Shown one piece after another: positions 1-49,091 of a DNA stretch of 64,000 bases (positions within the stretch are counted from its first letter, which is position 1; each line of letters opens with the position of its first letter). Source of the stretch: a virus; the IMG/VR virus record IMGVR_UViG_3300036780_000414, positions 1 to 64,000 of that record. One strand, written 5' to 3'. Position numbers and translations under genes: made by a program. The notes under the pieces were generated by a model. The model had not been told where the DNA came from and searched no databases. It saw only the letters and a program-made list of their open reading frames with translations.

Positions 1-390
1 GCTGACGCCCGTGACCACGGGGTGCCCGTCGCGCCGCTGCTAGCCGACACCGACAAGGTGACCCGTGCGATCCCGGCGGCCGGCCGCGTCCACTCAGGCA
101 AGGCGTGGTTCCCCGCCGTGACCGCAGGCTGCCCGTGCGGTGAGTGCAAAGACGGCAACTGGCTTGACGAGTGGTGCGACGAACTGGCAATCTTCCCGCA
201 AGGCACACACGATGACCAGGTGGACACCCTGGCGTATGCTGCCAGAGTGGCGGTCGCTGAATGGACGCCCGCACCTACGCCCGCTAGGCCAGGGCTCTCT
301 CCGCACGAGAGGGCGATAGCAGCCGCGCACGACAGTGCAACCGGCGACGGCAGGCATGGCGACCTCGACATCATGAACCTGCCGTTCTGA
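1..390 (+). CDS. terL: Terminase large subunit, C-terminal part
   Basis: The frame is open from base 1, so the gene begins outside the window; about 129 residues remain. The end contains FPQGTHDDQVDTLAYA, the typical end of the RNase H-like nuclease domain of phage terminase large subunits, where the paired Asp residues bind metal. Terminase pumps DNA into the prohead and cuts concatemers. The ATPase domain lies upstream of the window. It is followed directly by the head genes, as expected. The main uncertainty is only which packaging type (cos, pac) it belongs to. Confidence 0.9.
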   Translation, partial: ADARDHGVPVAPLLADTDKVTRAIPAAGRVHSGKAWFPAVTAGCPCGECKDGNWLDEWCDELAIFPQGTHDDQVDTLAYAARVAVAEWTPAPTPARPGLSPHERAIAAAHDSATGDGRHGDLDIMNLPF

Positions 391-861: not shown

Positions 862-3120
862 ATGCCAGCCGCCGCGCGCACCCGCCCAGGGCTGCCCACC
901 GCCGACATCGGCGTCCCCGACCTGTATTACGAGTACCAGGGGTTCACCGACTGGTGGGAGAACACCGCTGACCTGATCTGGCCAGCGTCGATGATCACGT
1001 ACGGGCGGATGCGGCATGACCCGCAGCTGAAGGCCGTCCTGATGGCGTACATGCTGCCGATCATGCGGGCCACGTGGGTGATCGACCCGGACGGCGCACG
1101 CGACGAGGTGGTGCAGGCGGTCGCGGATGACCTCGGCGTGAACATCCTCGGTGCCGATGAGCGGCCCGGCACGGCGCGGCGGCGTGGTGTCATCTGGCTG
1201 AGGCACCTGCGGCAGGCGCTTTACAACAAGCTCACCTACGGTTACATGCCGTTCGAGCGCCGTTACCGCATCGACGACACGGGGATGGCCCGCCTCGACA
1301 ACCTGGGGCCGCGGATGCCGTGGACGATCGCGATGATCGACGTGAACCGTGACGGCACCCTCAACCAGGTGTGGCAGAACACCCAGCGGGACCCGCTGCC
1401 CGCGAACCGTCTCGTCTGGTACACCAACGACCTCCAGGGCGGCGACTGGACCGGGGTGAGCGACCTGCGGGCGTGCTTCGGCGCATGGCTGCTGAAACAC
1501 GAAACCTGGCGGGTCCACGCCACGAGCATCCGCCGGTTCGGGATGGGCATCCCCAGCGTCGAGGCCCCGCCGGGGGCAACCCAGACGCAGGTCATGCAAG
1601 CGCAGCAGCTCGCCACGCAGATGCGCGCCGGCGACCACGCGGGCATCGGCCTGCCGCAGGGCTTCAAGCCGGGCCTCATGGGCATGACCGGATCGGTGCC
1701 GGACGCGCTCGGCTTCATCGAGTACCTGGACCGTGTCATGGCCAAGCAGGCACTCGCCGCGCTGATCGAACTCGGGCAGACCGAAACCGGCAGCCGCGCC
1801 CTCGGTGACACGTTCATGGACCTGTTCCTGATGTCACTTCAGGCTGTTGCCGACGACACCGCGCTGATCGCCACATCCGGCGTGCCGGGGTGCCCAGGCA
1901 TCATCACCGACCTGGTAGACCAGAACTGGGGTGAGGACGAGCCCGCCCCACGGCTGGTCTGCACTGACGTAGGCACCCAGTACGAGGCGACCGCAGCGGC
2001 AGTCCAGCAGCTCACCGCGACCGGCGCACTCCAGCCGGACGCCAGCCTGGACGAGTGGATCCGCAAGCAGTGGCACCTCCCCGTGCGTACCGCCCCGTGG
2101 ATACAGCCGCAACCTAAGAGCGCACCGCAGCCCGCCCATCCGCCGGGCGGCGGCGGTGCCAGTCCGGGCGGCGCTTCGCCGGGCTCGCCCCCGGCCAGCC
2201 CGCCCGGACAGGGCGGAACCCCGGATTCCCCCGGTCCGGGTAGCCCGTCCGCCGCTGGTACCCCCTCAGCGGCGGCCAGCCGCAGCACGGGCGCAGCCCC
2301 CCAACTGCCGCCCGTGCTGCGGCGCCAGCCGTCCGCCGTCGAAGCACGCTCCGGGTTCAACCCGGAAGACCACCAGCGGGCATGGGAAACGGCGCTGGGC
2401 ACCCTGATGTCAGCGTGGCAGCAAGTCACCGCGACCCTCAAAACGGACATCGTCGACCAGGTAGCAGCAGCGCTGGCAGGCGGCAACGTGGCGCAGCTCG
2501 CAGCTATCACGGTGGACGCCGCACCGGGTGCGGCGGTACTCGTCCAGTCGATGACAAGCGCCTGGCACGCTGCTGCGCAGGCGATGACCGCTGAGGCAGC
2601 CAGCCAGGGTGTCACGATCGACCCGGCCAAGGTGAAAATGCCGCCGCTCAGCCAGATCGCGTCCGGCCGGGCGAGCCTCGCCGCCTCCTACCTCGCGCAG
2701 CAGGCCGGGTCACGGGCCATGCGGAGCGTGCAGCCGGCGGTACCCGCCGCGAAGCAAGCCGAGGCTGCCGCCCTGGACGTGGCTGGGTTCCTCGACGACC
2801 TGTCCACCCGTAACCTCCGTGACCAGCTCGGCGGGGCACTGACCGCAGCGCAGAACGCCGGCCGTGTCGCGGTACTCGAAGCAGCGCCCGCCTCAGCCGG
2901 GCAGGCCGTCTACACGGCCAGTGAGATCCTCGACGGCAACGTCTGCGACCGTTGCCGCACGGAGGACGGCCACGAGTTCGGGTCGCTCGCTGAGGCGAAC
3001 GCCGCCTACCCGACCGGCGGCTACATCAACTGCCAGGGCGAGCTGCGATGCCGGGGGACCGTCGTCGCCGTCTGGGGCGGAACGCAGGCGGGCAGCCGCC
3101 CAAAAGCGGGGGCGTCATGA
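862..3120 (+). CDS. Portal protein fused to a MuF-type head morphogenesis domain
   Basis: 752 residues. The N-terminal ~400 residues resemble actinophage/Mu-gp29-type portals (N-terminal YYEYQGFTDWWENTADL segment followed by the repeated helical and wing regions). Residues ~417-493 are a Pro/Gly/Ser-rich linker. The C-terminus (~687-731) has CDRCRTEDGHEF and CQGELRCRG, the cysteine pattern of MuF/SPP1 gp7-like minor head domains. The portal forms the dodecameric DNA gate at one capsid vertex; MuF proteins are minor head components at that vertex. Fusion of the two into one chain is the notable feature. The 3' end overlaps the next start by ATGA. Confidence 0.88.
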   Translation: MPAAARTRPGLPTADIGVPDLYYEYQGFTDWWENTADLIWPASMITYGRMRHDPQLKAVLMAYMLPIMRATWVIDPDGARDEVVQAVADDLGVNILGADERPGTARRRGVIWLRHLRQALYNKLTYGYMPFERRYRIDDTGMARLDNLGPRMPWTIAMIDVNRDGTLNQVWQNTQRDPLPANRLVWYTNDLQGGDWTGVSDLRACFGAWLLKHETWRVHATSIRRFGMGIPSVEAPPGATQTQVMQAQQLATQMRAGDHAGIGLPQGFKPGLMGMTGSVPDALGFIEYLDRVMAKQALAALIELGQTETGSRALGDTFMDLFLMSLQAVADDTALIATSGVPGCPGIITDLVDQNWGEDEPAPRLVCTDVGTQYEATAAAVQQLTATGALQPDASLDEWIRKQWHLPVRTAPWIQPQPKSAPQPAHPPGGGGASPGGASPGSPPASPPGQGGTPDSPGPGSPSAAGTPSAAASRSTGAAPQLPPVLRRQPSAVEARSGFNPEDHQRAWETALGTLMSAWQQVTATLKTDIVDQVAAALAGGNVAQLAAITVDAAPGAAVLVQSMTSAWHAAAQAMTAEAASQGVTIDPAKVKMPPLSQIASGRASLAASYLAQQAGSRAMRSVQPAVPAAKQAEAAALDVAGFLDDLSTRNLRDQLGGALTAAQNAGRVAVLEAAPASAGQAVYTASEILDGNVCDRCRTEDGHEFGSLAEANAAYPTGGYINCQGELRCRGTVVAVWGGTQAGSRPKAGAS

Positions 3121-4463
3121 CGACGCCAACCAGCCAGCGGCCCGCCCGCGCCAAGTACAACCCTGAGCAGCCCCGTGACAAGGACGGCAAATGGGGGACC
3201 GGCGGCGGTGAAGCCGGCAAGATCGAGGACGCGGTGAAGCAGTGGACTGCGGACGGGAACACCGCGAACTACACGGGCAGCATGGGCATCAACCGGGCCG
3301 ACATGCCGCAGCTGTCCGGCACCGTCAACGGCACCTACCGGCCGTCAGCGGAGGTAACCCCGAAGTTCATCGCTCACCTCCGCGCCAAGGGCGCAACGGT
3401 AACCGCCAAGCGGGTACCCGCTGAGCAGCTGAAGCCGACGCAGGCAACCGGTGACCTCAAGGCGATCCGCGGCATCGCCGATGACCTGAAGTCAGGCAAG
3501 CTCAAGGACACCAAGACGATCATGGTGTCCAGCGACAACCACGTCCTAGACGGGCACCACAACTGGGCCGGGCGTGTCCTCGCAGACAGTGAGGGCGGCC
3601 GCAAAGACCTGCCCGCAGGGATGCCCGTGCAGCAGGTCGACATGCCGATGAGCAAGCTCCTCGGTGAGGCGTCCGCGTTCAGCAAGGACGAGGGCCTGCC
3701 GTCCCGCAAGCCCGGCGAGTTCGCGGCCCCGAAAGCGAAGCTCGGTGACCCGCAGCCGAACGACAGCATGGACCAGTACCGCAACGCGGACGGTGACTGG
3801 AAACCTGAGCGGGCCGAGCTCCACCAGAAGATCATCAAGAGTCTCGCCGGGGACGCTGAGCCGCAGGACAAGCCGATCGCGACGTTCTTCGGCGGCGGCC
3901 CCGCATCCGGGAAGTCAGCGCTGGCCGGCCCCGGCAACGCGGTGAAGATCGACCCGGATGAAATCAAGGCGCAACTGCCGGAGTACCAGCAGATGACTAC
4001 GGCCGGCGACCCGCAGGCCGCCGCGTACACCCATGAGGAGTCCAGCTTCATCAGCGCGTCTGCTGTCGCGCAGGCGCGGGCGAAGAAACTGAACTACACC
4101 CTTGACGGGACCGGGGACTCCTCCTACGCGAAGATGAAATCCAAGGTTGACGCGGCCCGCGCCGCAGGGCACGAGGTCCACGGCAAGTACGTCACCGCTG
4201 ACACCGACGAAGCCGTCAACCGGGCCATGAAACGCGCTGAGCACACCGGCCGGATGGTCCCCGAAGCGGTCATCCGGTCCACCCACGCGTCGGTGTCGCA
4301 GGTGTTCGGGCAGGCGGTCAAAGACGGGCTGTTCGACACCGTGGAACTGTGGGATAACAACGGCGCAGGCGCAGCACGGCTGATCGTCAGCGGCCACGGC
4401 AAGAACGTCACCGTCCATGACGCTAAGGCGTACCAGTCGTTCCTCGACAAGGCCAAGTCATGA
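3117..4463 (+). CDS. ParB-like domain plus zeta-toxin-type kinase, in the head operon
   Basis: 448 residues from the ATG that overlaps the portal stop (ATGA); an upstream in-frame ATG at 3048 lies inside portal coding and is less likely. The N-terminus (KYNPEQPRDKDGKWG) is like that of MuF-linked capsid proteins. Residues ~95-190 resemble a ParB/Srx-like fold with IMVSSDNHVLDGHHNW (DGHHNW near residue 145). Residues ~245-430 form a zeta/PezT-like kinase: Walker A GGGPASGKS (~260), IDPDEIK, HEES, LDGTGDS and an Arg-rich RAMKRAEHTGR segment, so the active site looks intact. Zeta kinases phosphorylate UDP-N-acetylglucosamine. It could be a virion-delivered effector, but that is inference. No obvious antitoxin was identified. 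Confidence 0.8.
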   Translation: MTTPTSQRPARAKYNPEQPRDKDGKWGTGGGEAGKIEDAVKQWTADGNTANYTGSMGINRADMPQLSGTVNGTYRPSAEVTPKFIAHLRAKGATVTAKRVPAEQLKPTQATGDLKAIRGIADDLKSGKLKDTKTIMVSSDNHVLDGHHNWAGRVLADSEGGRKDLPAGMPVQQVDMPMSKLLGEASAFSKDEGLPSRKPGEFAAPKAKLGDPQPNDSMDQYRNADGDWKPERAELHQKIIKSLAGDAEPQDKPIATFFGGGPASGKSALAGPGNAVKIDPDEIKAQLPEYQQMTTAGDPQAAAYTHEESSFISASAVAQARAKKLNYTLDGTGDSSYAKMKSKVDAARAAGHEVHGKYVTADTDEAVNRAMKRAEHTGRMVPEAVIRSTHASVSQVFGQAVKDGLFDTVELWDNNGAGAARLIVSGHGKNVTVHDAKAYQSFLDKAKS

Positions 4464-4672
4464 CCGCCCCCGACGGCGACACTGCGGTGCTGCTGCTGAA
4501 CGCGGTCCTCAACGGCCAGGACTACCCGCCTGACGGCGTACCCGACACCCCTGCGAACAAGGCCCTGTACGCGCAGATCGCCGCAGACGTGGACGCCATG
4601 CCGGGCGGGGTGCTGCCGGACGTGCCGTCCGACTGGTCGCAGATGCCCGACACGGGAGGCGACGGCCAGTGA
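4460..4672 (+). CDS. Small acidic protein in the head operon, unknown
   Basis: 70 residues, starting on an ATGA overlap with the zeta-kinase gene and ending on a GTGA overlap with the protease gene, so it is translationally coupled on both sides. Composition is acidic with many Pro and Asp. No motif is recognised. Its position immediately after a kinase-toxin-like gene would suit a small cognate inhibitor, but it lacks any resemblance to known epsilon antitoxins, so this is only a possibility. Confidence 0.65.
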   Translation: MTAPDGDTAVLLLNAVLNGQDYPPDGVPDTPANKALYAQIAADVDAMPGGVLPDVPSDWSQMPDTGGDGQ

Positions 4673-6738
4673 CCACCGCCGCCAAGCCCGGCAACAAGGG
4701 CAACGAGGAAACCCTGATCCGCTACTGGACCGAGGGTGAGGGCGCCGCGAAGATTCGCTGGGGTGAGCCGGGCGACTTCGACCGCTGCGTCACCGAAGTC
4801 ACCAAAGACGCACACGGGAAAGTCCCCGAGGTCAAGGGGTACTGCGCGAACCTCCACCACCGGGCGCTGGGCGTGTGGCCAGGGCAGGAAGACGAAGGCG
4901 GCAGCCACGGGCACAAGGCGTCCGCAGCCGCATCAACAGGCAGCATGACGCTCCCCCCGCTGGTGACCATGCCGAACGTGGAGATCGTCGCCGCCGGCAC
5001 GTGGGCGCTGTCATCCGGTGAGGCCACGTTCACCCGCGACGACCTCACAGCAGCGGTAGAAGCGGCGCAGTGCCCGGCGGTCGGCTCCCCCGTCATCAAG
5101 ATCGGCCACGTTGACCCCCGGTTCGACGGGGAGCCCGCCGTGGGGCACGTCACCAACCTTGCCCTGTCCAGCCAGGGCAACAAGCTCAGCGGCGACCTCG
5201 CGGGGATGCCCGGCTGGCTCGGCGCGATATGCAGCAGCGCGTTCCCGTCCCGCTCGATCGAAGGCTGCTATGACTTCCGCTGCCAGGTCGGCCACGTGCA
5301 CCCGTTCGTCATCACCGCGCTCGCGCTGCTCGGCGTGACCCCGCCCGGCGTCGGCGTGCTCGGCACGCTGAACGACGTGGCGGCCCTTTACGGTGTCACG
5401 GCAGCCGCCGGCACCGGAGATACCTGGACCCTGAAGGGAGCAGCGATGGCCAGTCCGGTGCAGGCCAGCGTCACCATCGAGGACGTGCGGCGGGCCTACT
5501 ACGCGCAGGCGGGCACGAGCCTCACCAACTGGATCACGGAGATGCAGCTTGACCCGCCGCAGCTGATCGTCTGCGACGACGCCACTGACAGCGTGTACCG
5601 CGTGCCGGTGACGATCGCCAAGGACGGCTCAGTCGGGTTCGGTGACCCCGTGCAAGTCAAAGTCGAGTACCAGGATGTTGCCGCGTCCCGCAAGACCGGG
5701 CAGGCGGTCGTGTTCGCCAGCCTGGAAGAGTCCCGCGCCGGCGTCACCGCCGCCAGCGGGTGGGACGCGCAGCAGCAGGTCGGCAACCTGGGCGACGACC
5801 CGAGCGCCGCGCAGCTCAAGGGCATGTTCGCGATCCCCGGTGACACCAAGAGCGATTCGAAGCTGCCGCACCATGACGCGAGCGACGGCAAGGTCGGCGC
5901 GGCTAACCCCGCCGGCTGCTCAGCTGCGATCGGCGCGATCAACGGGGCGCACGGCGGCATGACAGGCGTGTCCGCGGCCGACCAGAAAGCCGCCTACGCG
6001 CACCTGGCCAAGCACCTGACTGACGCCGGGCAGGAAGCACCTGAGTACAGCGGGCCGTCAGCGTCGGCCGGCCCGCAGGTGGACGCCGCCGGCAACCACG
6101 GCGCGTACGACGGCTCGCACGCGCACCCGCACCCGGCGTTCGGCTCGCAAGGCGGCGACGCCACCCACACTCACGAGCACACGCACGCGGGTGACGCCGG
6201 ACATGACCATCACATGGCACAAGACCCGGCAGCAGCGGGCACCGACAAGAAAGGAACCTCGAAGGTGGACCTCACCAGCGAGCACATCACCAGCCTGCGC
6301 GCAAGCCTCGGGCTGGGCGACAACGACGAGCTGACCCCCGACCTCCTGGTGAGCGCGGCGGGCAAGCTCAAGGACCGGGCGGACGCCAAGGTGACCGCCA
6401 ACGCGCGCAGCCTCCCGCCAGGTGTCATCGCCGTGGAAAGGGAAGCGTGGGACGGCCTCAACAAGCGCGTCGAAGACGGCGAAGCGTACCGCCAGCGGCA
6501 AGCGGTCAAGGAACGCGACACGATCATCGCGTCCGCGATCCGCGAAGGCAAGTTCACCGTCGCACGAGCCGACCACTGGAAGCGGCTGTGGGACGCCGAC
6601 CCGGACGGCACCCGGCAGGTACTCGCGGGGCTTCAGAAGAACGTGGTGCCGGTCGGGGACATCGGCGCTGTCGGCGGCAGCAACCCGGACGACCCGGACG
6701 ACGAGTACAAGGCCCTGTTCGGCACCCCGGCTATTTAG
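4669..6738 (+). CDS. Prohead protease (Mu gpI-like) and scaffold polyprotein
   Basis: 689 residues from a GTG overlapping the previous stop. Order of parts: residues ~10-70, a small domain (RYWTEGEGAAKIRWG...) often found at the N-terminus of actinophage capsid proteins; ~100-245, a Mu gpI-like serine protease region with IKIGHVDPRF and PSRSIEGC; ~260-360, a second globular part; ~395-460, a Lys/His/Ala-rich domain; ~480-520, a His-rich linker; ~533-689, a charged helical scaffold-like tail. In related phages such a protein supplies scaffolding and then cleaves it during prohead maturation. Two internal in-frame starts with good ribosome sites (5446 and 6265) would yield shorter products, as in Mu I/Z and lambda C/Nu3. 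Confidence 0.82.
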   Translation: MTTAAKPGNKGNEETLIRYWTEGEGAAKIRWGEPGDFDRCVTEVTKDAHGKVPEVKGYCANLHHRALGVWPGQEDEGGSHGHKASAAASTGSMTLPPLVTMPNVEIVAAGTWALSSGEATFTRDDLTAAVEAAQCPAVGSPVIKIGHVDPRFDGEPAVGHVTNLALSSQGNKLSGDLAGMPGWLGAICSSAFPSRSIEGCYDFRCQVGHVHPFVITALALLGVTPPGVGVLGTLNDVAALYGVTAAAGTGDTWTLKGAAMASPVQASVTIEDVRRAYYAQAGTSLTNWITEMQLDPPQLIVCDDATDSVYRVPVTIAKDGSVGFGDPVQVKVEYQDVAASRKTGQAVVFASLEESRAGVTAASGWDAQQQVGNLGDDPSAAQLKGMFAIPGDTKSDSKLPHHDASDGKVGAANPAGCSAAIGAINGAHGGMTGVSAADQKAAYAHLAKHLTDAGQEAPEYSGPSASAGPQVDAAGNHGAYDGSHAHPHPAFGSQGGDATHTHEHTHAGDAGHDHHMAQDPAAAGTDKKGTSKVDLTSEHITSLRASLGLGDNDELTPDLLVSAAGKLKDRADAKVTANARSLPPGVIAVEREAWDGLNKRVEDGEAYRQRQAVKERDTIIASAIREGKFTVARADHWKRLWDADPDGTRQVLAGLQKNVVPVGDIGAVGGSNPDDPDDEYKALFGTPAI
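5433..5448 (+). promoter_or_regulatory. Internal ribosome binding site and ATG within the protease gene
   Basis: GAAGGGAGCAGCGATG places a strong purine tract about five bases before an in-frame ATG (codon 260). Translation from here would give a product starting MASPVQASV, beginning exactly at the junction after the protease domain. Seen in sequence; use in vivo is inferred. Confidence 0.5.
6251..6267 (+). promoter_or_regulatory. Internal ribosome binding site and GTG, probable scaffold start
   Basis: AAGGAACCTCGAAGGTG gives an in-frame GTG (codon 533) with a purine tract nine bases upstream. The product (~157 residues) would contain only the helical C-terminal scaffold part. This matches the nested protease/scaffold arrangement of Mu gpI/gpZ and lambda C/Nu3. 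Confidence 0.55.
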
Positions 6739-7201: not shown

Positions 7202-8125
7202 ATGCCGAATGTCTACCCCCCGGCACCACCGACACTGTCCGGCGACGTTCTCTCTATCAGCCGGTTCCTGAACTCGCCTACGGCGATCAGGCGGCGGCTG
7301 CGCGACTACCGGGACCTGCGGTTCGTATCCGACCAGATCCTCACCCAGCGGTTCAACAGCTCCGGTGGCGCGGTGCTGTACGAGATGAGTGAGCCGTTCC
7401 TCACTGACCGGCCCGTTGAGTCGGTCTCCCCCGGTTCCACCTACCCCAGGGCGAACCTGCCCACCGGCACGGCGGCGGTCGCGTCGGTGCAGAAGTGGGG
7501 TCAGGTCGTGGAGCTGACCGATGAGGACATCGACCGCAACACCTACGGCGGCCAGCTAGTCGACCGGAACCTGAAGAAGGTCGTTAACTCGGTTATCGCG
7601 CAGGTCGACGGCATCACCATGTCGGCTATCGCGTCGGCGGTCACCCAGACGCAGGCGGCGTCCAGCGGGCACTGGAATGTCCTCGGCACGGCGGCGATCC
7701 TGCGTGACATCCTGCTCGCCAAGAAAGTAATCACGGACCTGAAGCTCGGCTACAACCCCGACACGCTGCTGCTCGACGACCTCATGTGGGCGTACCTCAT
7801 GAGTGACGACAAGATCACGAACGCGCTGCGCCGGGAGAACACGGACAACCCCATCTACACCGGGACGATCGACGTGCTGGCGGGGCTGACGCTGATCAAC
7901 TCCCCGAACGCCCCCGCCGACCCCATGGTGCTCGACTCCACGCAGCTCGGCGGCATGGCGGACGAGGTCGGCTCAGCTCCCGGCTACGCCGTGTCTGACC
8001 TCGCCGTGCAGATCAAGAGCATCCGCGTGGACGAGGCCGACAAGTGGGACCTCCAGGGCCGCCGTCTCACCGTCCCCGTGGTGCAGGAGCCCGGCTCCGG
8101 GTGCACCATCACCGGCACGCACTAG
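7202..8125 (+). CDS. Major capsid protein (HK97 fold)
   Basis: 307 residues with a strong AGGAAGGGA ribosome site. The sequence has features of actinophage HK97-type capsid proteins: an N-terminal arm (SRFLNSPTAIRRRLRDYRD), an E-loop-like segment, TDEDIDRNTYGGQLVDR spine-helix region, a long A-domain with LDDLMWAYLMSDD, and a C-terminal LQGRRLTVPVVQEPG strand. Length is typical. It forms the icosahedral shell and is preceded by protease/scaffold and decoration genes as usual. No long delta domain is present, in line with a separate scaffold. Confidence 0.9.
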   Translation: MPNVYPPAPPTLSGDVLSISRFLNSPTAIRRRLRDYRDLRFVSDQILTQRFNSSGGAVLYEMSEPFLTDRPVESVSPGSTYPRANLPTGTAAVASVQKWGQVVELTDEDIDRNTYGGQLVDRNLKKVVNSVIAQVDGITMSAIASAVTQTQAASSGHWNVLGTAAILRDILLAKKVITDLKLGYNPDTLLLDDLMWAYLMSDDKITNALRRENTDNPIYTGTIDVLAGLTLINSPNAPADPMVLDSTQLGGMADEVGSAPGYAVSDLAVQIKSIRVDEADKWDLQGRRLTVPVVQEPGSGCTITGTH

Positions 8126-46554: not shown

Positions 46555-47090
46555 TACGCTGTCCCTCTCTCGGTGTCGAGCTGCTGGCCGGTGCGTGACT
46601 CGGGGCACTGGTAGCAGCGGTAGGTGGCGTCCGGGTGGTGGCCGCCGCTGCTGACCAGCTCCCAGCGGTGCGGTTCGGCGCTGGTGCCGTGGGCGGGTGT
46701 CCAGGTGCAGGTGGCGTACCGGGTCCAGTGGACGAAATGGCTGCTGGCCCCGGTGTTGTGCGCGTGCTGCATCGCGTACGGGAGGACATGATGGTGGGTG
46801 GTCATGTGGTCGAGCCACAGCGGCTCATCCCACGCTGCGGTCAGGTCGCATGCGGCCTCAGCGTCGTCGTGGTCAACCTCGATCGCGCTGTACCCCTGGC
46901 TGCGCAGGTGCGCGGTCAGCTGCCCGGCGGTGCCGGTGAACGTCTCATCGGGGCCGGCTCCCGCGTGGTTGGCGTGGCTCTCGGTGCTGACGCAGGCCAG
47001 CCCCTCGACGCCGTGCGTGACGTGCGTGTCGTAGTACCAGGTGCGCGTGCCTGCTGGCACCTGGTGCTTGAACTTGAACTGCTCGCTCAT
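46554..47090 (-). CDS. Protein of unknown function, Trp/His-rich
   Basis: 178 residues, ATG after GAGAGAGGGTGAGG. Rich in His and Trp (LDHMTTHHHVLPYAMQHAHN, FVHWTRYATCTWTPAHG), with a C-terminal YRCYQCPESRTG. Expressed from the promoter at 47114, which is embedded in the end of the HerA-like gene. Confidence 0.65.
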   Translation of the reverse strand: MSEQFKFKHQVPAGTRTWYYDTHVTHGVEGLACVSTESHANHAGAGPDETFTGTAGQLTAHLRSQGYSAIEVDHDDAEAACDLTAAWDEPLWLDHMTTHHHVLPYAMQHAHNTGASSHFVHWTRYATCTWTPAHGTSAEPHRWELVSSGGHHPDATYRCYQCPESRTGQQLDTERGTA

Positions 47091-48919
47091 CGCCTCACCC
47101 TCTCTCTAACATCAGTGTACCACACACATGTAAGCAGTAGCGGGTGGCCGGGCGGTTCCTTTGAGCACCTGGTCACCCTGCACGGCGCCGCCCGGTAGCT
47201 GAACGCCTGCCCGTGGCCCGGTAACGACCTGACGGCAGGTGCCGCCTGACTCGCGAGGAAGAACACGTCAGCGGCCCGTATCCCCGTGCCGTCCTCGGTC
47301 ACCAGGTTGTTGCTCCGCAAGGTTGACAGGTAAGAGCCGAAGGTGCTGCCCACCGGGTTGATGCCGGCGAGGGTCGCCAGGTCGGAACGGGAAACTGGTT
47401 CCGGGTAGCGTTCCAGCAGGCAATCGAGCATCCCCCGCGCCCCGGCCTTGAGGACGCTGCGCCAGCGGGCGCGGATCTCCTCGGGCCTCGGCGGCGCGGC
47501 GTCCGCTGCGGCACCTGCGGCCGCCAGCCCGTCAGCCGTGATCACCACGAACACGCCGTCCTGGACGACCAAGCCGTTCATCCGCAGCGCCGAGAGATAG
47601 GAGCCGAAGGTGCTGCCGGACCCCTTGATGCCGGCAAGGGCGGCGAGCTGGCCACGGGTCATCTTCAGCGGGTGATGCCGTGCAAGCTGTTCGAGCATGT
47701 CCCGCGCGCCTGCCTTCAGCGCCCTCGAACCGCCGGCCGGCACCGGCCGGGCCACTTCACCATGCGACGGCTCCACAGCCTGGCGCTGCGGCTGCACGGT
47801 TACCGGCGGCTTGGCGGCCCGGCTGAGCGCCAGTTCGACGCTCCCCGCAATATCCCGCAGGCCAGTGATGGCCTGCTCAAGCGCAGCGATGTCACCGGCT
47901 GTCAGGACGGGCACCTCAACGCGCTCCGGTTCGCGGTGGCTAGCCTGGGCCAGCTGCGCGCGCAGCGTAGCGACTTCCCGGCGGAGGCTAGCAGCCGGGT
48001 CGTCGGGGACGCCGCCCTGTTGCAGCAGCACCGCCATCCGCTCAAGGTCTGCGGGGTTCACCGGCGCGAACCGGCGCGGCGTGACAGCCTGCTCGCCGAC
48101 CTTCGGCGTAGCTGAGGAGTCGAACGTGCTGCGAGGGCGGACCTGGATCTTCCGCATGACTTCCAGCCAGCCCGGCGACCACACCCACGCTGTTCCTACG
48201 GGCAGCGACGGCAGGGAGTCCTTCAGCTCCCTCGCGTCCTCGTCGCTGGCGTGCAGCCGGATCCACTCGTCTATCGCGGCGACGTCGAGCTTGCCGAGCA
48301 GCCGCATCGCGATCAGTACCTCCACCTGCGAGCGGATCGCGGAGTGCAGCTGAGCAGGGCGCAGGGTGATGCTCGTTGAGCCGATGCCGGGCTTGCGGCC
48401 GCGCAGCACGATGTCCTCATAGGCGCCGAGCAGCCGGGGGTCACGCTCACCGGCCTGGCTGGCGAAGCGGTCTGCCTCGTCTATGACCAGGTGCAGCGGT
48501 TCCCGGTTCGCGCGGAACAGGCGCTCCATGAAATCGGTGGCGAACTTCCGCTGCTGCGTCTTCGACATCAGGAACATGTCCAGGACGACAGGTAGCCGCT
48601 CAGATGCCACCAGGTCCGCGACGGCTGTTCCCGACCTCGGGTCAAGTGGCAAGTCGGCGTGCTCACCGCCGAGGATCGTCACCGGCAGCCCTGGCCCCTG
48701 CCCGTCAGCGGAGGACCGCAGGCCCCACCAGGAGCCCATCGGGTCAAGCACGCACGCGGGCAGGCCCGCGCCGATCAGCTCCTCAACCAGGACTGACGCA
48801 GTAGCGGTCTTCCCGCTGCCGCGCTTGCCGAAGATCAGGAACGTCTCGGTTACCGCGTCGATCGGCAATGCGAGGTCGCCTGCGATCCGCAGGTCACTAG
48901 CTGCGGGCGCGGCTGGCAT
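47087..48919 (-). CDS. HerA/VirD4-type ATPase with two C-terminal winged-helix repeats
   Basis: 610 residues from ATG at 48919 (GGAGGAAGCAG upstream); an ATG nine codons earlier lacks this. Walker A GKRGSGKT (31-38), Walker B LHLVIDEAD (142-150), and GRKPGIGSTSITLRPAQLHS (~174-193), the HerA/FtsK-superfamily pattern. Residues ~280-390 are helical and Pro/Arg-rich. Two repeats of ~57 residues at ~398-455 (LKAGARDMLEQLARHHPLKM...) and ~488-546 (LKAGARGMLDCLLERYPEPV...) each end FGSYLS-LR-N-LV, like winged-helix DNA-binding units. HerA-family proteins are hexameric DNA translocases. The last 20 codons read through a promoter element. Coupled to an RHH and an HNH gene. Confidence 0.82.
   Translation of the reverse strand: MPAAPAASDLRIAGDLALPIDAVTETFLIFGKRGSGKTATASVLVEELIGAGLPACVLDPMGSWWGLRSSADGQGPGLPVTILGGEHADLPLDPRSGTAVADLVASERLPVVLDMFLMSKTQQRKFATDFMERLFRANREPLHLVIDEADRFASQAGERDPRLLGAYEDIVLRGRKPGIGSTSITLRPAQLHSAIRSQVEVLIAMRLLGKLDVAAIDEWIRLHASDEDARELKDSLPSLPVGTAWVWSPGWLEVMRKIQVRPRSTFDSSATPKVGEQAVTPRRFAPVNPADLERMAVLLQQGGVPDDPAASLRREVATLRAQLAQASHREPERVEVPVLTAGDIAALEQAITGLRDIAGSVELALSRAAKPPVTVQPQRQAVEPSHGEVARPVPAGGSRALKAGARDMLEQLARHHPLKMTRGQLAALAGIKGSGSTFGSYLSALRMNGLVVQDGVFVVITADGLAAAGAAADAAPPRPEEIRARWRSVLKAGARGMLDCLLERYPEPVSRSDLATLAGINPVGSTFGSYLSTLRSNNLVTEDGTGIRAADVFFLASQAAPAVRSLPGHGQAFSYRAAPCRVTRCSKEPPGHPLLLTCVWYTDVRERVRR
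47114..47140 (-). promoter_or_regulatory. Leftward promoter element embedded in coding DNA
   Basis: On the - strand TACATGTG-TGTGG-TACACT, then GATGTTA and GAGAGAGGG. The element lies within the last codons of the HerA-like gene and serves the gene starting at 47090; the predicted leader is about 15 bases. Confidence 0.7.
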
Positions 48920-49091
48920 CTGCTTCCTCCTCAACAGCCCTGGCAACGGCCTCCTGCTCGTTGCAGTACACGGTCACCAGGTCAACGGCGACTTCACTCA
49001 TGCTCTTGCCGTTCCTCGCGGTGGCGGCCTTGAACCGCCTGCGCAGGTCGTCTGGGAAGCTACTGATCTCCAGCTTGTTCGGCCTGTCCAT
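48897..49091 (-). CDS. Ribbon-helix-helix DNA-binding protein
   Basis: 64 residues, ATG after GAGAGGAGAGGG. N-terminal strand NKLEISSFPDDLRRRFKAAT followed by ARNGKSMSEVAVDLVTVYCN, the strand-helix-helix pattern of Arc/CopG proteins, which bind operators as dimers of dimers. Overlaps the HerA-like gene (23 bases) and the HNH gene (32 bases). Could autoregulate this operon. Confidence 0.75.
   Translation of the reverse strand: MDRPNKLEISSFPDDLRRRFKAATARNGKSMSEVAVDLVTVYCNEQEAVARAVEEEADASRARS

What the first reader, a model, noticed from the sequence alone, without database searches (positions are those of the whole stretch)
3117..4463. Zeta-toxin-type kinase fused to a ParB-like domain in the head operon
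The kinase motifs (GGGPASGKS, IDPDEIK, LDGTGDS) are intact and the gene is coupled to the portal-MuF gene. Toxins are known to ride on MuF-type proteins, but here MuF is fused to the portal and the toxin is separate. Products may be packed into the virion and act on the host wall precursor pool on entry. The tiny gene at 4460 might be an inhibitor.
Basis: partly seen in the sequence, partly recalled or inferred. Interest (0 to 1): 0.6.

Follow-up and report, generated by a model that had tools for sequence, protein, structure and literature searches.

The report
Phage head-operon kinase with candidate antidote
A bacterial virus carries, among the genes that build its capsid, a toxin-like kinase that is probably packed into the particle and injected into the next host; it starts with a short tag shared by many such cargo proteins, and its family is very often followed by a tiny gene that looks like its antidote.

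Summary
Window 3117-4463 encodes 448 aa: an N-terminal tag (aa 13-31, KYNPEQPRDKDGKWGTGGG), a ParB/Srx-like domain and an intact Zeta_toxin kinase (Pfam E=2.7e-26; fold match to zeta toxin). It is translationally coupled (ATGA/ATGA/GTGA) between a portal-MuF gene and the 70-aa gene plus head protease. Kinases of this kind fused to MuF are already published (Iyer 2017), so the kind is known. Three points go beyond that. (1) In relative L012 portal, MuF, tag and kinase form one chain; the window is the split version. (2) The tag RDxxG[RK][WF] is a real protein motif: 96 copies against 0.6 expected in fetched ORFs. It precedes ART, RNase, kinase, topoisomerase, MuF and prohead-protease modules in other phages, and I found no description of it. 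The UDP-GlcNAc claim is not supported: zeta's contacts E100 and R120 are replaced family-wide (K, D/N) and T128 is not conserved, while an HxES motif is shared with the NAD kinase AvrRxo1. Virion packaging, toxicity and substrate remain untested.

The parts
22..390 (+). C-terminal piece of the large terminase (contig starts here)
   Evidence: phrog_38 terminase large subunit E=2.7e-9
862..3120 (+). Portal protein with C-terminal MuF-type Cys-rich segment
   Evidence: Portal_Mu E=5.6e-41; phrog_113 portal E=2.8e-64; C-terminus aligned to L012 portal-MuF-kinase chain
3117..4463 (+). Tag + ParB-like + zeta-like kinase gene, 448 aa; starts in the ATGA overlap with the portal-MuF stop
3153..3209 (+). 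N-terminal cargo tag, aa 13-31 KYNPEQPRDKDGKWGTGGG
   Evidence: motif RDxxG[RK][WF]: 96 observed against 0.6 expected; 80 of 89 pattern hits in the longest frame; conserved at protein level
3264..3716 (+). ParB/Srx-like domain (aa 50-200), motif DGHHxWA
   Evidence: phrog_2859 E=7e-17; BFVD ParB/Sulfiredoxin fold matches; D96, G97, H98, H99, W101 of alignment A11 invariant in 31 sequences
3798..4460 (+). Zeta-like P-loop kinase domain (aa 228-448)
   Evidence: Pfam PF06414 E=2.7e-26; PDB fold 1gvn_B 2e-10, AvrRxo1 4z8q 3.4e-9
3891..3917 (+). Walker A GGGPASGKS (K266)
   Evidence: invariant Lys in 42/42 sequences
3948..3968 (+). IDPDEIK with catalytic Asp281 (zeta Asp67)
   Evidence: 42/42; Asp67 as catalytic base, PMC3062530
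4032..4046 (+). HEESS motif (H306, E308, S309), shared with AvrRxo1 and not zeta
   Evidence: 42/42; profile alignment to AvrRxo1 and zeta
4101..4121 (+). LDGTGDS; D334 sits where zeta has Arg120
   Evidence: D/N in 41/42 sequences
4460..4672 (+). 70-aa candidate inhibitor/partner gene
   Evidence: homologues in 64 loci, all with kinase, 35 of 37 clusters within -4 to +84 nt of the kinase end
4669..6738 (+). Head maturation protease gene
   Evidence: phrog_3894 E=1.2e-101
7202..8125 (+). Major capsid protein
   Evidence: phrog_1650 E=4.8e-78; Phage_capsid_4

Best explanation
A head-cargo effector of the polyvalent/MuF-toxin kind. The kinase is made late with the head genes, is held silent in the producing cell by the 70-aa product of the next gene, is brought into the prohead through its N-terminal tag (in relatives, through direct fusion to portal/MuF), and is ejected with the DNA into the next host, where it phosphorylates a host nucleotide-type metabolite; the ParB-like domain acts on DNA or nucleotides. 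Shown: intact kinase fold and catalytic residues, operon coupling, fusion of the same kinase to portal/MuF in relatives, the tag as a protein-level motif on head-operon effectors, exclusive linkage of the small gene to the kinase. Inferred: packing into virions, tag function, inhibition by the small protein, toxicity, substrate. Step estimates: virion cargo 0.75; small protein binds the kinase 0.7 and inhibits it 0.55; UDP-GlcNAc as main substrate about 0.2, NAD or another adenine nucleotide about 0.4.
For: Kinase: Pfam, model and fold match. Cargo: one-chain portal-MuF-tag-kinase in L012 and portal-tag-kinase in L020; Phage_Mu_F + Zeta in L025, L030, L031, L034, L037, L041, L064, L072; 43% identity to the minor head protein of cyanophage PSS2. 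Tag: 96 vs 0.6; tags sampled by DNA pattern precede ADP-ribosyltransferases, Zeta, RNase A, Tox-REase-5, Colicin E5, InPase, TopoIB, M23, and head proteins MuF, Peptidase_S78, S78_2; at the extreme N-terminus of a head-operon protein between portal and capsid genes in Mycobacterium phage Predator and Nocardia phage P3.1. Partner: 64 loci, all kinase-positive; 15 loci with the XkdF-type protease but no kinase lack it, including L162 whose protease is nearly identical to that of L033/L039; convergent on the opposite strand yet adjacent in L037/L064, fused in frame to the kinase in L023.
Against: No proteomics, assay or cultured relative with this exact architecture. 16 of 53 kinase clusters show no detectable partner (several are kinases buried in longer chains), so the inhibitor is not universal. 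The partner has no sequence match to epsilon, PezA or Arc1 in the PDB, and the model of the natural fusion L023 gives only moderate confidence for the small part and no docking information. In some loci the small domain is the N-terminus of the head protease, which also fits a head-assembly role. The tag could be a linker that binds a head component without targeting, or a protease site.
Confidence: 0.6

Rival explanations
1. A zeta/PezT-like UDP-GlcNAc kinase delivered to stop peptidoglycan synthesis, as the first reader and Iyer et al. propose for MuF-fused zeta kinases.
For: Same fold and catalytic Lys/Asp as zeta; zeta is the best PDB match by sequence profile (4e-16) and by fold; Iyer 2017 assigns this role to MuF-fused zeta kinases.
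Against: Of the UDP-GlcNAc contacts in zeta (PMC3062530), E100 is K in 34/42, R120 is D or N in 41/42, T128 is not conserved. AvrRxo1, which also lacks them, phosphorylates NAD and not UDP-GlcNAc to any significant extent (PMC5087710, PMC4938570).
Confidence: 0.2
2. The 70-aa protein is not an antidote but an assembly adaptor: it binds the kinase and hands it to the prohead, which is why it lies between kinase and protease and is sometimes fused to the protease.
For: Fusion to the N-terminus of XkdF-type protease in L033, L039, L067, L085, L118; position between kinase and protease in the window.
Against: It is absent from otherwise matching proteases without kinase (L162), and convergent on the other strand in L037/L064. 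This separates adaptor and inhibitor only weakly: both require kinase binding.
Confidence: 0.3
3. The RDxxGRW segment is only an inter-domain linker spread with the modules, without a function in packaging.
For: Followed by Gly-rich stretches; lies at domain boundaries in long chains such as L100 and L035 with five copies each.
Against: It is kept near the N-terminus of stand-alone proteins that have nothing upstream to link (window, L014, L099, Predator gp14, P3.1), and the letters, not the DNA, are conserved.
Confidence: 0.3
4. An early host-takeover or metabolic kinase that happens to lie in the head operon and acts in the producing cell only.
For: No proteomics exist for this phage; head-operon position alone does not prove packaging.
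Against: Covalent fusion to portal/MuF in several relatives.
Confidence: 0.15

Closest known systems
Polyvalent proteins of phages and conjugative elements (Iyer et al. 2017, PMC5512222)
   Same: Head-operon, multi-domain effector with zeta-like kinase and ParB-like domain; the paper names zeta-like kinases fused to MuF and DdrB-like ParB domains.
   Different: Here the kinase is a short separate protein coupled to a portal-MuF gene; the N-terminal tag and the kinase-linked small gene were not found described there.
MuF polymorphic toxins of temperate phages (Jamet et al. 2017, PMC5576092)
   Same: Toxin modules tied to MuF in the head operon and followed by a small ORF read as immunity gene.
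   Different: No kinase or zeta toxin is named there; in the window MuF sits on the portal, not on the toxin.
Cyanophage PSS2 minor head protein ACT65592
   Same: 43% identity over the kinase domain, with a MuF-type segment upstream in the same chain by motif.
   Different: 1499-aa chain with a further ART-like part (by motif), no ParB-like domain, no detectable small partner.
Zeta/PezT toxins
   Same: Fold, Walker A, catalytic Asp.
   Different: UDP-GlcNAc contacts not kept; candidate antitoxin downstream and unrelated in sequence.
AvrRxo1/Arc1
   Same: ERxxLH and HxESS motifs, kinase followed by a small gene.
   Different: Small protein lacks the Arc1 motif; whether NAD is the substrate is untested.

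Membership tests
Zeta_toxin superfamily (PF06414) | Pfam match above curated cut-off and P-loop kinase fold | tested here: met
   92.7 bits against 22.3; fold match 1gvn 2e-10
Zeta/PezT UDP-GlcNAc kinase | UDP-GlcNAc contact residues Glu100, Arg120, Thr128 | tested here: not met
   A314 (family K), D334 (family D/N), S342 (variable) (residues from PMC3062530). The mapping rests on the phmmer alignment and is weakest at T128
Zeta/PezT UDP-GlcNAc kinase | Epsilon- or PezA-type antitoxin next to the toxin | tested here: not met
   Small gene is downstream; profile A9 finds no antitoxin in PDB sequences
Polyvalent / MuF-linked virion effectors | Location in head operon and fusion to MuF/portal | tested here: met
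   Location met in the window; fusion met in relatives L012, L020, L031 and others, split in the window
Polyvalent / MuF-linked virion effectors | Protein present in virions and ejected | not testable with these tools
   Needs proteomics of a cultured phage
MuF toxins (Jamet) | MuF domain at the N-terminus of the toxin chain | tested here: not met
   MuF segment ends the portal gene in the window; met in L031, L034, L041, L072
MuF toxins (Jamet) | Small ORF directly downstream | tested here: met
   4460-4672; family-wide linkage
AvrRxo1/Arc1 | ERxxLH helix and HxESS motif of the kinase | tested here: met
   profile alignment to 4z8q; R232 and H236 in 41/42, H306/E308/S309 in 42/42
AvrRxo1/Arc1 | Arc1 motif KExFD...ExxYY in the small partner | tested here: not met
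   absent from alignment A9 by inspection (motif from PMC4938570)
DdrB-like ParB | ParB/Srx fold | tested here: inconclusive
   matches only to predicted models and phrog_2859; no Pfam match in 31 members; PDB sequence search gave only spurious protein A hits

The most novel reading that the evidence does not exclude
The RDxxG[RK][WF] segment is a general capsid-targeting or prohead-processing tag that marks proteins for loading into phage heads, used by many unrelated phages to swap effector modules, and the kinase family travels with its own dedicated small inhibitor, a new toxin-antidote pair in which the toxin is exported inside virions.
Probability: 0.4. Interest if true: 0.8.

Novelty: new variant of a known kind. 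Interest (0 to 1): 0.58.

Why it matters
Which proteins a phage packs into its head besides DNA is mostly unknown for uncultured phages. If the tag is a loading signal, it would let one read off packed effectors from sequence and could be tested directly in a laboratory phage host such as Mycobacterium smegmatis. A kinase-specific antidote family would explain how phages make toxic cargo without poisoning their own factory.

Tried and rejected
UDP-GlcNAc kinase as default reading: rejected as main reading on residue evidence. Small gene as an ordinary head-operon gene: rejected by the protease-matched control, 15 kinase-free protease loci without it. Small gene as an Arc1, epsilon or PezA homologue: no sequence support. 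Tag as a DNA-level repeat or recombination site: rejected, fourfold sites vary freely and mean DNA identity is 0.65. Tag literature search by peptide strings found nothing; that library holds only open-licence papers. tblastn of the F-variant tag and of the 70-aa protein against named phages gave no match. First genome-contig scan with the ParB+kinase alignment found no relative; the second, with the kinase profile, gave 8 loci, mostly MAGs and one Bacillus, too few to name hosts. Profile scan with the small-protein alignment in viral contigs was not possible, too little conservation. My first motif scan for the small protein found only three copies; the profile search replaced it. PADLOC: no match.

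Full report
What is there. Window 3117-4463 encodes a 448-aa protein in a head operon: terminase fragment, portal-MuF, this gene, a 70-aa gene, head protease, major capsid protein. Start and stop codons of neighbouring genes overlap by four bases at 3117, 4460 and 4669, so by sequence the four genes look translationally coupled. The source is an 82,795-bp IMG/VR virus record, 68.6% G+C in the window, host unknown.

Domains. The C-terminal half is a Zeta_toxin kinase (E=2.7e-26); the AlphaFold2 model has kinase and ParB-like parts at high confidence and a low-confidence first 42 residues. Fold search gives zeta toxin 1gvn (2e-10), AvrRxo1 4z8q (3.4e-9) and PezT first. The N-terminal half is a ParB/Srx-like domain by phrog_2859 and by BFVD models, with relatives inside the giant DarB/PLxRFG proteins of phages F116, LKA5 and BcepIL02. 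No Pfam family covers it, so ParB-like is a fair but unproven label.

Head linkage in relatives. Among kinase relatives from viral contigs the kinase is fused to Phage_Mu_F in many chains (L025, L030, L031, L034, L037, L041, L064, L072), and to the portal in L012 and L020. L012 reads portal-MuF-AAFNPAEPRDPHSGKWW-kinase in one chain; in the window the same line is cut by ATGA between MuF and the tag. This makes the kinase a head-cargo module whose fusion to MuF/portal is optional.

The tag. A motif RDxxG[RK][WF], usually within [KR][FY][DN]P[DNS][QE]PRDxxGRWTxGG, occurs 96 times in 1061 non-redundant ORFs of the first 167 loci, against 0.6 in shuffled ORFs. In 102 modules that follow tags in this second set, Pfam finds Zeta (6), ADP-ribosyltransferases (ADPrib_exo_Tox 6, ART 2, ART-PolyVal 1), topoisomerase IB, inorganic pyrophosphatase, RNase A, Tox-REase-5, Colicin E5, ParB_N, M23, GNAT and RelA_SpoT, and of head proteins MuF and two prohead protease families; most modules have no match. 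Across 247 tags the protein letters are fixed while fourfold sites use all four bases. In named phages the tag opens a head-operon protein annotated as maturation protease in Mycobacterium phage Predator and relatives and in Nocardia phage P3.1. It stands near the N-terminus of stand-alone proteins and at domain boundaries in long ones. I read it as a head-loading or head-processing tag, by analogy with the T4 capsid targeting sequence (own knowledge); that is inference.

The small gene. Profile searches find relatives of the 70-aa product in 64 loci, every one with the kinase, and in none of the loci without kinase. After clustering kinases at 80% identity, 37 of 53 clusters have it, 35 of them within -4 to +84 nt of the kinase end; two distant, low-scoring hits (L087, L030) are doubtful. 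It follows kinases in different settings (portal-fused, MuF-fused, ParB-fused, ferritin-fused in L067), is fused to the kinase in L023, lies on the opposite strand in L037 and L064, and is the N-terminus of an XkdF-type protease in L033, L039, L067, L085 and L118. Control: of 34 loci with this protease type, 18 have kinase and small protein, 15 have neither, and 1 (L084) has kinase only; L162 has a protease nearly identical to that of L033/L039 with another N-terminus and no kinase. Loci are fragments of varying length and some overlap, so cluster counts are the ones to use. Linkage of this strength fits an immunity partner, as Jamet et al. argued for MuF toxins and as shown for Arc1 downstream of AvrRxo1; an assembly adaptor is not excluded.

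Substrate. In zeta, UDP-GlcNAc is held by Asp67, Arg120, Thr128 and Glu100 (PMC3062530). Asp67 is kept (D281, 42/42). The counterparts of Glu100 and Arg120 are K (34/42) and D/N (41/42), and that of Thr128 is not conserved. The family shares ERxxLH and HxESS with AvrRxo1, a 3'-NAD kinase that lacks the UDP-GlcNAc residues as well. So UDP-GlcNAc is not supported, and NAD is a fair candidate but no more.

Conclusion. A new variant of a known kind: a polyvalent/MuF-type phage effector kinase. New as far as I could search are the tag with its breadth, the kinase-exclusive small partner, and the residue argument against UDP-GlcNAc.

Noticed in passing
L002, L004, L006 (several positions): A second recurrent motif GPKGYIHGWI.V precedes modules in the same multi-domain head proteins: 14 copies against 0 in shuffles. 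It may be another tag of the same sort.
   Followed up: partly
L289:3995-4756, L288:3989-4699: The tag opens the proteins annotated as head/capsid maturation protease in Mycobacterium phage Predator and Nocardia phage P3.1; these short basic proteins may be misannotated.
   Followed up: partly
L033:3525-4307, L039, L067, L085, L118: The kinase partner domain is fused to the N-terminus of an XkdF-type prohead protease.
   Followed up: yes
L067:2807-5824: Ferritin/Dps-like domain and zeta kinase in one 1006-aa chain.
   Followed up: no
L006:202-3546 and L006:6747-12746: Neighbourhood with MuF, ART-PolyVal and, by motif, several further ART-like modules around the kinase; NUDIX in the ORF between.
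   Followed up: no
window 47090-48946 (-): A second terminase-large-like protein (phrog_2666, E=2e-16) far from the head operon, on the other strand.
   Followed up: no
BFVD A0A6J5LTH6: A phage protein labelled anti-CBASS Acb1 matches the kinase fold in its 1134-aa chain, suggesting kinase plus anti-CBASS in one protein.
   Followed up: no
BFVD hits: Zeta-domain proteins of giant viruses (Harvfovirus, Tupanvirus, Terrestrivirus, Indivirus) match the same fold.
   Followed up: no
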